This document shows positions 27,013 through 59,020 of a stretch of 64,000 nucleotides of DNA, piece after piece (the stretch's first letter is position 1; each line of letters opens with the position of its first letter). The position numbers and the translations under genes are program-made. Origin of the DNA: Erinaceus europaeus (Eukaryota; Chordata; Mammalia; Eulipotyphla; Erinaceidae); assembly GCF_950295315.1 (NCBI RefSeq), contig NC_080179.1:71236615-71300614 (forward strand). Reading direction: 5' to 3'. The notes under the pieces were generated by a model, which did not search any database, was not told where the DNA came from, and saw nothing but the letters and a program-made list of their open reading frames with translations.

Positions 27013-27182
27013 TGATTTTATTTTTTGTCCTTACTGGGCTTTCACTGCTCCAGGATGACTTTTTTAGGCAGAGACAGAGATAAAGACACTACAGAGAGAT
27101 TACGGTATCAAAGCTTCCTTCAGCACCTTGGAAACCAGGTTAAAGTCTGGGCTGCACACATGTTGAGCTATTTTGCTGGCCT
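27013..27182 (-). mobile_element. SE SINE-like repeat
   Basis: ttactgggctttcactgctcc, GA body, aaagcttccttcagcacc, end ttttgctggcc. Confidence 0.6.
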
Positions 27183-27503
27183 GCAGCTTGAATTTAAAAA
27201 AAAAAAAATTATTATTCATTTCCCCTTTTTGTTGCCCTTGTTTTTTTATTGTTGTAGTTATTATTGTTGTTGTTATTGATGTCTTCCTTGCTGGATAGGA
27301 CAGAGAGAAATGGAGAGAGGAGGGGAAGGCAGAGATGGGGAGAGAAAGATAGACACCTGCAGACCTGCTTCAACGCCTGTGAAGTGACTCCACTGCAGGT
27401 GGGGAACCGGGGCTTGAACTGCGATCCTTAAGCGGGTCCTTGGGCTTTGCGCCACCTGCGCTTAACCGCTGCGCTACCACCCGACTCCCTGCAGCTTGAA
27501 TTT
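27181..27503 (-). mobile_element. SA SINE with TSD, diagnostic variants
   Basis: Inverted SA at 27199-27488 with TSD ctgcagcttgaattt at 27181-27195 and 27489-27503. Its head has uncommon variants: cttgggctttgcgcc and taaccgctgcg lacking one C. The same variants and the same flank recur at 56985-57066. Confidence 0.92.
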
Positions 27504-27618
27504 TAAAGATCATATTCAAGGATGTAGAAATGGGGTAGGAGCATTTCAAAAAGATACTGCAAGTCACTGTCATGTGGTCAGTGAAATGCCACATCCAATT
27601 TCAAGTAAGACTTCATTT

Positions 27619-56751: not shown

Positions 56752-57681
56752 GCCTTACCACCTTTCCTTCCCCCCCCCCCCCAACAATTTGTTGTCCTTG
56801 CTGTTGTAGCCTTGTTGTGGTTATTATTGTTGTTGATGTCGTTTGTTGTTGGGTAAGACAGAAAGAAATGGAGAGAGGAGGGTAAGACAGAGAGGGGGAG
56901 AGAAAGACAGACACCTGCAGACCTGCTTCACCGCCTGTGAAGCGACTCCCCTGCAGGTGGGGAGCCGGGAGCTCGAACCACGATCCTTAAGCGGGTCCTT
57001 GGGCTTTGCGCCACCTGCGCTTAACCGCTGTGCTACCGCCCGACTCCGTGCAGCTTGAATTTTAAAGGATCCTTCCACCTGTCCTTGCACTTTGTACCAA
57101 AGATAATCATCACCACAGTTCTCACAAGTCTTACAGTTTGCTTGCTTCTGTTTTTTTGGGTTTTTTTTTTTAAAGTTCATGTGCATCTGTTCTCTAGATT
57201 CCACCTGTAAGTGAAACCATCTGGTAGTTGTCTTTGACTCTTTCATCTCTTTACTTTAACAAATACTTTTTAATGTTTATTCTTTTTTTAAAAAAGGAAA
57301 TTAAGATTAGTGATTTTTTTTTTTTTTGGCCTCCAGGGTTATCGTTGGGACTCGGTGCCTGCACTACAGTAAATCCACTGCTCCTGGAGGTTATTTTCCT
57401 TTTTCGTTGCCCTTGTTTTTTATCATTGTTGTCACTGCTGTTGTTGCTTTTGGATAGGACAGAGAGAAATCGAGAGAGGAAGGGAAGATAGAAGAGGGAG
57501 AGAAAGGTAGACACCTACAGACCTGCTTCACTGCTTGCGAAGCGACCCCCCATCCCCTGCAGATGGGGAGCTGGGGACTCGAACCAGGATCCTTATGCGG
57601 GTCCTTGCGCTTTGTACCACGTGCGCTTAACCCGCTGCGCTACCGCCTGACCCCCACACCACCCCTGCCTTACCACCTTTC
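56752..57681 (-). mobile_element. Mosaic SINE-headed retroposon, exact 15-bp TSD
   Basis: The 900-bp unit 56767-57666 is bounded by gccttaccacctttc at 56752-56766 and 57667-57681. Read on the minus strand: an SA-x copy (57656-57330), its 3' flank of old L1 DNA (57329-57100), a 33-bp SA fragment (57098-57066), 18 bp identical to the target flank of the 27.2-kb SA, then a second SA head sharing that SINE's rare variants, a different SA body and a G-rich end. The first 557 bp are an inverted copy of 58186-58756. Confidence 0.85.
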
Positions 57682-57898
57682 ATTGATTGTCTGCAGTCCT
57701 CACGTACCTCCTCCTCTCACACCTTGCTGCATTCCCGTTGGGACCCATGATTGGTGGGGAGCGTCTCACTGTCCCCACACCTCTCAGCTCGACCCTGGCA
57801 TAACACCCTCAGTGGAACATTAGAATCATTCCCTTTAGTGTGTCTTCAACAATTGAGATGTTTGCTGAGAAAAACCACAATCCAAGAATTTTTATCTT

Positions 57899-58068
57899 TG
57901 ATTTCATCTGTATTTATTTATTTGATAGGAGGGAGAAATTGAGAAGCAAAAGAAGACAGAGAAGGAAAGAGAAGCTTTCACCTGGGGATGGGCACCGGGG
58001 GCTAAAACCAGGGTCCTTCTGCATTGCCATGTGTGTGCTCAGGCGGGCATGCCACCACCCAGATCCCC
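57899..58068 (-). mobile_element. SC SINE
   Basis: Inverted SC with gctaaaaccagggtcc B-box region. Confidence 0.75.
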
Positions 58069-58171
58069 AGCTACAGTTCTAATCTCTATCGATAACTGCC
58101 ATGGCACTTAGATATCTGATCACATCTGGAAGAAAATGCGCGGTACCGAGTGGTCTCGTTTTGAATGTAAG

Positions 58172-58545
58172 ATCGCTAATCTTAGGGGTCGGGCAGTAGC
58201 GCAGCGGGTTAAGCCCACATGGTGCCAAGCGCAAGGACCCGCATAAGGATCCCAGTTCGAGTCCCCAGCTCCCCAGCTGCAGGGGATGGGATGGGATGGG
58301 GGTCGCTTCGCAAGCAGTGAAGCAGGTCTGTAGGTGTCTGTCTTTCTCTCCCTCTATCTTCCCTTCCTCTCTCGATTTCTCTCTGTCCTATCCAAAAGCA
58401 ACGACAGCAGTGACAACAACGATAAAAAACAAGGGCAACAAAAAAGGAAAAATAACCTCCAGGAGCAGTGGATTTGTAGTGCAGGCACCGAGTCCCAACG
58501 ATAACCCTGGAGGCAAAAAAAAAAAAAAAAAAATCACTAATCTTA
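58172..58545 (+). mobile_element. SA-x SINE with TSD, presumed source locus
   Basis: SA-x at 58186-58531 with a (gggat)n expansion near 58275. TSD atcgctaatctta / atcactaatctta shows it inserted here in older L1 DNA. Confidence 0.92.
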
Positions 58546-58870
58546 ATTTCCTTTTTTTAAAAAAAAAAAGAATAAACATTAAAAAGTATTTGTTAAAGTA
58601 AAGAGATGAAAGAGTCAAAGACAACTACCAGATGGTTTCACTTATATGTGGAATCTAGAGAACAGATACACATGAACTTAAAAATATATATATATAAAAA
58701 AAACCAGAAGCAAGCAAACTGTAAGACTTGTGAGAACTGTGGTGATGATTATCTTAGGGAGGATGGAGGGTGGGACACAGAACTGTGGTGGTGGGTGTGG
58801 TGTGGAGCTAGACACTGTGATCTTACAGCCTTGTAACCTACTATTTATCACAAATATAAACAATGAGAAA
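58546..58870 (+). mobile_element. Older LINE-1 3' UTR
   Basis: Contains tttcacttatatgtggaatc, a motif I know from mammalian L1 3' UTRs, then gtggtggtgggtgtggtgtg and ttacagccttgtaacc. Shares its end with 16936-17035. Confidence 0.7.
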
Positions 58871-58872
58871 AA

Positions 58873-59020
58873 AACTTTTTATGTATTGCCAGAACTCTGC
58901 TTAGCTCTGGCTCATAACAGTACTGGGTATTGAACCTGGGAACTCGAAACCTCAGGTTTGGACATGTGTTGTTGCTGTTGTTGTTGTTGTTGTTAAATAA
59001 TCACTATGCTATCTCCTTAC
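58873..59020 (-). mobile_element. SB SINE with (GTT)n
   Basis: Inverted SB in which a GTT array (58967-58995) has expanded within the head. Confidence 0.85.

What the first reader, a model, noticed from the sequence alone, without database searches (positions are those of the whole stretch)
56752..57681. Mosaic SINE-L1-SINE retroposon inserted as one unit
An exact 15-bp TSD encloses 900 bp that is a patchwork: an SA-x SINE with 230 bp of its 3' flank (copy of 58186-58756, inverted), a 33-bp SA fragment, then 18 bp of the native target flank of the 27.2-kb SA plus that SINE's variant head, then an SA body of another subtype. One TSD means one insertion, so the pieces were probably joined during reverse transcription by template switching, starting from a SINE read-through transcript. 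The left end begins about 11 nt before a SINE 5' end.
Basis: partly seen in the sequence, partly recalled or inferred. Interest (0 to 1): 0.8.

Follow-up and report, generated by a model that had tools for sequence, protein, structure and literature searches.

The report
SINE patched from two neighbouring SINEs
What looked like a composite jumping element inserted in one go is better read as one ordinary SINE copy that was later broken and patched with DNA copied from two other SINE copies nearby on the same chromosome, a small fossil of faulty DNA repair.

Summary
The genome (2.72 Gb) could be searched. The unit appeared once, and each donor junction was found only at the unit and at its donor in this window, 29.6 kb and about 0.5 kb away. 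That fits copying from local DNA and is very unlikely for transcripts drawn from a whole genome. Both copied pieces carry donor flank outside the SINE: 19 nt upstream of the 27.2-kb SINE, about 222 nt downstream of the 58.2-kb SINE, past a T7 run. There is no A-tail. With both pieces taken out, the rest reads as one SINE of 267 nt, gap-free at both joins against 24 of 24 relatives. Best reading: a SINE insertion made the repeat; a later break inside it was repaired from two neighbouring SINEs, one end running out into a donor's 3' flank, the other into a donor's 5' flank, before joining with 0 and 1-2 bp of overlap. Reverse-transcriptase template switching is disfavoured, not excluded. A known kind of event, in an unusually legible natural example.

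The parts
56752..56766 (.). left copy of the 15-bp target-site duplication
   Evidence: exact match to 57667-57681
56767..56782 (-). 3' end of the resident SINE: G13 run plus AAG (read on the minus strand), no A-tail
   Evidence: long-subtype relatives have CAACAAAAGGGGG or similar at this point, then an extension the unit lacks
56783..56980 (-). body of the resident SINE X (subtype with ACAACAAGGCTAC)
   Evidence: sites follow the 24-member panel, not the 27.2-kb donor, from 56979 on
56981..57067 (-). patch 2: copy of 27422-27508, head of the 27.2-kb SINE (56981-57048) plus 19 nt of its 5' flank (57049-57067)
   Evidence: 3 mismatches of 87; junction found exactly only here and at the donor, plus one 3-mismatch match on another contig
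57067..57099 (-). 33-bp piece of SINE head, read as resident SINE X between the two patches
   Evidence: ends at the SINE position where the body resumes at 56980; no gap near the join in 24 of 24 relatives
57100..57612 (-). patch 1: inverted copy of the 58.2-kb SINE and about 222 bp of its 3' flank; its upper edge lies somewhere in 57577-57612
   Evidence: flank found from its first base only here and at the donor
57613..57655 (-). SINE head, probably of resident SINE X rather than of the 58.2-kb donor
   Evidence: 20 of 23 sites fit one switch, p 0.018; TGGTACAAAG identical to the 33-bp piece
57656..57666 (-). 11 extra nt between SINE 5' end and TSD
   Evidence: origin unknown
57667..57681 (.). 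right copy of the 15-bp target-site duplication
27182..27508 (-). donor 2: 27.2-kb SINE (27218-27489) with its own TSDs (27182-27199 and 27490-27507)
58172..58755 (+). donor 1: 58.2-kb SINE (58185-58533 with A-tail), its near-TSDs (58172-58184, 58533-58545), and the 3' flank that was copied (to 58755); T7 run at 58552-58558

Best explanation
A single SINE copy (X) inserted here by ordinary target-primed retroposition and made the 15-bp TSD (inferred from TSD and SINE ends). Later the DNA inside X was broken in its tRNA-like head. The left end found the inverted SINE 0.5 kb away by SINE homology and was extended along it, through its tail and about 222 bp of its 3' flank. The right end found the SINE 29.6 kb away by homology in the SINE body and was extended the other way, through its head and 19 nt of its 5' flank. 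The two extended ends and a 33-bp piece of X between them were joined with 0 and 1-2 bp of overlap. Shown: donors, direction of copying, no other copies found, junctions, one sharp switch in unit A. Inferred: that the template was DNA, that X was there first, that both patches arose in one repair event.
For: Donor junctions found only locally: 27.2-kb junction, 3 matches within 3 mismatches, the two exact ones = donor and unit; 58.2-kb flank, 2 of 40 scored loci cover it from base 1 (donor and unit), the other 38 start at base 64 or later at 85% identity or less (3,990 candidates, 40 scored). By my arithmetic a random donor falls within 29.6 kb on either side with probability 2.2e-5. Run-out directions are those that two-ended repair requires: 3' flank for the left end, 5' flank for the right end. 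One sharp switch in unit A at 56981/56979 (p 0.0003), the same SINE position at which the 33-bp piece ends. With the patches removed X is a continuous SINE, no gap within 4 nt of a join in 24 of 24 relatives. Control: of 27 SINE heads detected in 83.5 kb only the 27.2-kb head and the unit share 5' flank with another SINE head.
Against: The head of unit B is only weakly separated from the 58.2-kb donor (p 0.018; sites 57616, 57585 and 57425 run against the split, and most head differences are at CpG sites). Joined X is not clearly closer to the panel than unit A is (mean 351.4 against 350.1 bits, better in 15 of 24). Some 7 to 20 bp of X head (with TGGTAC) would be present twice, which needs a staggered break or a sister template. 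The join 57099/57100 has neither overlap nor added bases, whereas the mammalian cell study that I lean on reports obligatory use of microhomology and/or nucleotide addition at such joins (PMC5104497). The 11 nt at the 5' end and the missing 3' extension of X are not explained. No outgroup or empty site was available, so order and dates are not shown.
Confidence: 0.68

Rival explanations
1. One reading: one retroposition in which L1 reverse transcriptase jumped between several RNAs (SINE X RNA, an RNA holding the 27.2-kb SINE with upstream flank, a SINE fragment, a read-through RNA of the 58.2-kb SINE).
For: One exact TSD encloses all pieces. All pieces are in the same SINE sense. Precedent: a fungal tripartite chimera with 14-bp direct repeats and mouse B2-U6-L1 chimeras with 15-16 bp repeats (PMC2104539, abstract and one section read).
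Against: Two donors, neither junction found elsewhere in the genome, both within 30 kb. Flank upstream of one SINE, and about 222 nt beyond the other, past a T7 run. The donors lie in opposite orientations, so one local transcript could not supply both in SINE sense. No A-tail. The end of the 33-bp piece coincides with the resumption of the body.
Confidence: 0.12
2. Hybrid: during insertion, the unfinished SINE cDNA, still attached to the target, invaded local SINE DNA and was extended there before the second end was joined; TSD and patches from one event.
For: Explains one TSD and local DNA donors together; the switch from X body to the 27.2-kb head lies in homologous SINE sequence and in the right direction for a growing cDNA.
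Against: The last template (58.2-kb DNA) would have to be entered about 222 bp outside homology and left exactly at its SINE 5' end, though a DNA template runs on; the 5' side of the target has no SINE homology that I saw. Precedent (chimeric L1 by strand annealing) is recalled; the one search for it listed 20 of 35 papers, without the paper that I recall.
Confidence: 0.1
3. Replication-based serial template switching (FoSTeS/MMBIR) inside resident SINE X, a single strand hopping X, 58.2-kb locus, X, 27.2-kb locus, X.
For: Same sequence evidence as the best explanation; the doubled TGGTAC stretch fits a strand returning to X slightly upstream; close inverted SINEs can fold back (the SINE parts only). 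Multi-template germline insertions of this class are in print (PMC8421209, passages read).
Against: Needs four jumps, against two invasions and two joins. The data do not separate the two models well; they share the main claim (local DNA templates, X resident first).
Confidence: 0.1

Closest known systems
[quoted passage not shown] passages and one section read)
   Same: an invading end is copied on past homology, may switch template by homology, and is then end-joined to the other end of the break
   Different: an engineered reporter with sister chromatid and plasmid donors, joins with microhomology and/or added nucleotides; here a natural, inherited case with two dispersed SINEs as donors and one join with neither
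MMBIR-linked templated insertions in human germline genomes (PMC8421209; passages read)
   Same: insertions copied from nearby templates, some from three templates
   Different: that survey looked for templates within 100 bp; here templates lie 0.5 and 29.6 kb away and entry is by SINE homology
Tripartite chimeric retroelements by double RNA template switch (PMC2104539; abstract and one section read)
   Same: several pieces inside one TSD of 14-16 bp
   Different: their pieces are read as copies of transcripts; here pieces hold genomic flank of two local loci, and there is no A-tail
Alu/LINE-1 chimeric insertions (PMC13174262; abstract and one section read)
   Same: SINE joined to other sequence inside one TSD
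   Different: there SINE plus L1, 452 cases, the examples shown with poly(A) tail; here SINE with SINE and donor flank, no A-tail
Templated sequence insertion polymorphisms, class 1 and 2 (PMC5110952; passages read)
   Same: sequence templated from elsewhere fills a break or site
   Different: class 1 has TSD, poly(A) and a poly(A) signal; class 2 has no TSD; here the TSD is assigned to the host SINE and the patches lie inside it
Tailless retropseudogenes (PMC5322556; abstract read)
   Same: SINE X ends without an A-tail but has a TSD
   Different: described there for truncated RNAs of many kinds; X was not tested for priming by target complementarity

Membership tests
Chimeric retroelement by RT template switching | one TSD around all pieces | tested here: met
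   exact 15 bp
Chimeric retroelement by RT template switching | A-rich tail next to the 3' TSD | tested here: not met
   G13 plus AAG
Chimeric retroelement by RT template switching | L1 endonuclease site TT/AAAA | tested here: not met
   sense strand reads CAAT/GAAAGG at the inferred nick; only 40% of 452 TSD-bounded Alu/L1 chimeras in PMC13174262 have the motif, so its absence weighs little
Chimeric retroelement by RT template switching | pieces are copies of transcripts | tested here: inconclusive
   both donor pieces hold non-SINE flank; a T7 run follows donor 1; no RNA data
Composite SINE family | many copies with the same junctions | tested here: not met
   whole unit found once, 40 of 20,458 candidates scored; donor junctions found exactly only at donor and unit
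Templated repair from local DNA (non-canonical HR termination / MMBIR) | donors nearby | tested here: met
   0.5 kb and 29.6 kb, no other copy found genome-wide
Templated repair from local DNA (non-canonical HR termination / MMBIR) | entry by homology, exit in donor flank | tested here: met
   unit A: switch inside SINE homology (p 0.0003), exit in 5' flank; donor 1: exit in 3' flank, entry weaker (p 0.018)
Templated repair from local DNA (non-canonical HR termination / MMBIR) | joins by microhomology and/or added nucleotides | tested here: inconclusive
   1-2 bp overlap at 57066-57067; none and no added base at 57099/57100, unless the 33-bp piece itself counts as filler
Templated repair from local DNA (non-canonical HR termination / MMBIR) | dependence on recombination or end-joining enzymes | not testable with these tools
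   needs experiments
Templated repair from local DNA (non-canonical HR termination / MMBIR) | unpatched precursor present in relatives | not testable with these tools
   G000 has no relatives held

The most novel reading that the evidence does not exclude
If such loci are common in SINE-dense genomes, dispersed SINEs act as local repair templates, and some chimeric retroposons inside one TSD are misfiled repair scars.
Probability: 0.5. Interest if true: 0.5.

Novelty: new member of a known kind. Interest (0 to 1): 0.4.

Why it matters
It suggests that one TSD around a mosaic is not enough to call it a product of reverse-transcriptase template switching: donor copy number and location should be checked. 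It gives a testable signature (SINE homology on one side, unique donor flank on the other, polarity fixed by which end invaded) for scanning genomes for ectopic repair seeded by SINEs.

Tried and rejected
Composite SINE family: rejected, found once. Chance similarity: rejected. Segmental duplication of the donor loci: no second copy of either junction found outside the window. Assembly chimera: thought unlikely, not tested with reads; the contig is 78.6 Mb and the copies differ by substitutions. Dating X against the patches: too few unit-private sites to tell; left open. GGTACAAAG as proof that the 33-bp piece and the unit B head share a source: dropped; within the window it occurs only in these two but it is common among the listed genome matches of the 33-mer. 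A first control by BLAST of all SINE flanks gave 484 matches, many of them to SINEs, and its output was cut; replaced. Viral-contig scans with a junction and with a SINE word found nothing. tRNA and Rfam scans found nothing. Papers: search listings; I saw no report of this locus in those listings, which is no proof that none exists. PMC7615360 (passages) and PMC12026660 (abstract and passages) were read in part and not relied on.

Full report
Setting. The window lies in a 2.72-Gb genome of 1,172 contigs (G000:C96:71236615-71300614). The SINEs look like hedgehog tRNA-derived SINEs; that is recalled and no call names the organism. All coordinates are of the window; the unit is read on the minus strand (SINE sense).

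Observation. From SINE 5' to 3': TSD 57681-57667; 11-12 nt; SINE head and body from 57655/57654 to about 57314; 3' flank of the donor down to 57100; 33 bp of SINE head (57099-57067); 19 nt of foreign flank (57067-57049, one or two bases shared with the piece before) and a SINE head (57048-56981); a body of another subtype (56980-56783); a G13 run and AAG; TSD 56766-56752. The two TSD copies are identical over 15 bp.

Donor 1. 57100-57654 aligns with 58755-58185 inverted; the BLAST match 57097-57654 has 90.5% identity over 580 columns including gaps (its last two bases match by chance past the junction), and the gap-free blocks are 91-98% but for one of 51 nt at 80%. The donor SINE has near-TSDs on both sides (12 of 13 bases alike), and the unit carries the 3' one followed by the same flank, so the 58.2-kb locus is the source. 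A genome search with 58530-58780 found the flank from its first base at two places, donor and unit; the other 38 of the 40 scored loci match from base 64 or later, at most 85% identical (3,990 candidates, 40 scored). A 3-base insertion near the end of the piece is shared by donor and unit and absent from the six of eight other loci that aligned in register.

Donor 2. 56981-57067 equals 27422-27508 with 3 mismatches of 87, two at CpG. The 27.2-kb SINE has its own TSD (CTGCAGCTTGAATTT with neighbours), so the 19 nt are native there. The pattern spanning SINE start and flank, with up to 3 mismatches, has three genome matches: donor, unit, and one with 3 mismatches on another contig. Among 27 SINE heads detected in 83.5 kb around the unit, 9 have a second place for their 19-nt 5' flank within 2 mismatches; apart from the 27.2-kb head and the unit these are places near the same SINE's 3' side or A- and T-rich stretches, none beside another detected SINE head.

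Switch in unit A. With 24 relatives (the best matches of unit A, so chosen for likeness to it), 22 sites separate the 27.2-kb donor from the panel; 21 fit a single change from donor-like to panel-like, between 56981 and 56979; the misfit is 57038, at a CpG (permutation p 0.0003). Several relatives have the same ACAACAAGGCTAC signature and a G run at the same point.

Switch in unit B. With 32 relatives, 20 of 23 sites fit a change from panel-like to 58.2-kb-like between 57613 and 57599 (p 0.018). The misfits are 57616 (donor-like before it), 57585 and 57425 (panel-like after it), and most of the head differences are at CpG positions, so I hold this only as probable.

The 33-bp piece. It is SINE head sequence of a widespread subtype (2,423 places within 3 mismatches; one exact, the unit). 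It ends at the SINE position at which the panel-like body resumes after patch 2. If both patches are removed, head (36 nt), piece (33 nt) and body (198 nt) give a 267-nt SINE; none of 24 relatives shows a gap within 4 nt of a join. The first join was placed by me; the second is set by the data to within a base or two. The joined SINE scores about the same as unit A against the panel (mean 351.4 and 350.1 bits, better in 15 of 24), so the test speaks for continuity, not for closer kinship.

Mechanism. Under reverse-transcriptase switching the donors are RNAs, and I know of nothing that would make two of them come from the same 30 kb. By my arithmetic the chance for one random donor locus is 2.2e-5 at 29.6 kb and about 1e-6 at 1.7 kb. 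RNA would also have to start upstream of one SINE and pass a T7 run after the other, and since the donors lie in opposite orientations one local transcript could not serve for both. DNA repair needs none of this. In two-ended repair the left end must run out through a donor's 3' flank and the right end through a donor's 5' flank; both are seen. The joins have 0 bp (57099/57100) and 1-2 bp (57066-57067) of overlap. Homology-led entry with end-joined exit, also with further template switches, has been shown in mammalian cells, where the authors report obligatory use of microhomology and/or nucleotide addition at such joins (PMC5104497, passages and one section); the overlap-free join here departs from that unless the 33-bp piece is itself filler. 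Multi-template germline insertions are in print (PMC8421209, passages). The double presence of a 7-20 bp stretch with TGGTAC in unit B and the 33-bp piece could be a filled-in staggered break or a return to a sister template; inferred.

What the TSD says. It dates to the insertion of SINE X. It does not bind the patches to that insertion. X lacks an A-tail and the 3' extension of its long-subtype relatives, as in tailless retropseudogenes (PMC5322556, abstract); I did not test priming.

Verdict. Observation right, nearly to the base; mosaic by template switching right in outline; reverse transcription as the step of switching is disfavoured. The kind of event is known; two run-outs of opposite polarity in one scar make this example unusually legible, in my judgement. 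The order of events rests on inference until a relative or haplotype is read.

Noticed in passing
57100-57654 and 58185-58755: The patch created long inverted repeat arms (about 560 nt) separated by 530 nt. Folded as single-stranded DNA, the stretch 57314-58529 (SINE parts of both arms and the spacer) gives one long hairpin, a likely site of later instability.
   Followed up: partly
56770-56782: A run of 13 C (G on the SINE strand) sits where relatives have a shorter G run; it looks like an expanded family feature and not a tail.
   Followed up: partly
58282-58303: The 58.2-kb donor SINE has a GGGAT-type repeat, 9 nt longer than the copy in the unit; expanded after the copying or shortened in the copy.
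   Followed up: no
57071-57086 and 56752-56769: The 33-bp piece contains CCTTCCACCTGTCCTT, close to CCTTACCACCTTTCCTT at the left TSD; probably chance, since similar letters occur in other copies of the SINE subtype.
   Followed up: partly
58534-58880: Dispersed repeat, probably an L1 3' end (recalled), interrupted by the 58.2-kb SINE; 38 other scored loci genome-wide match part of it.
   Followed up: partly
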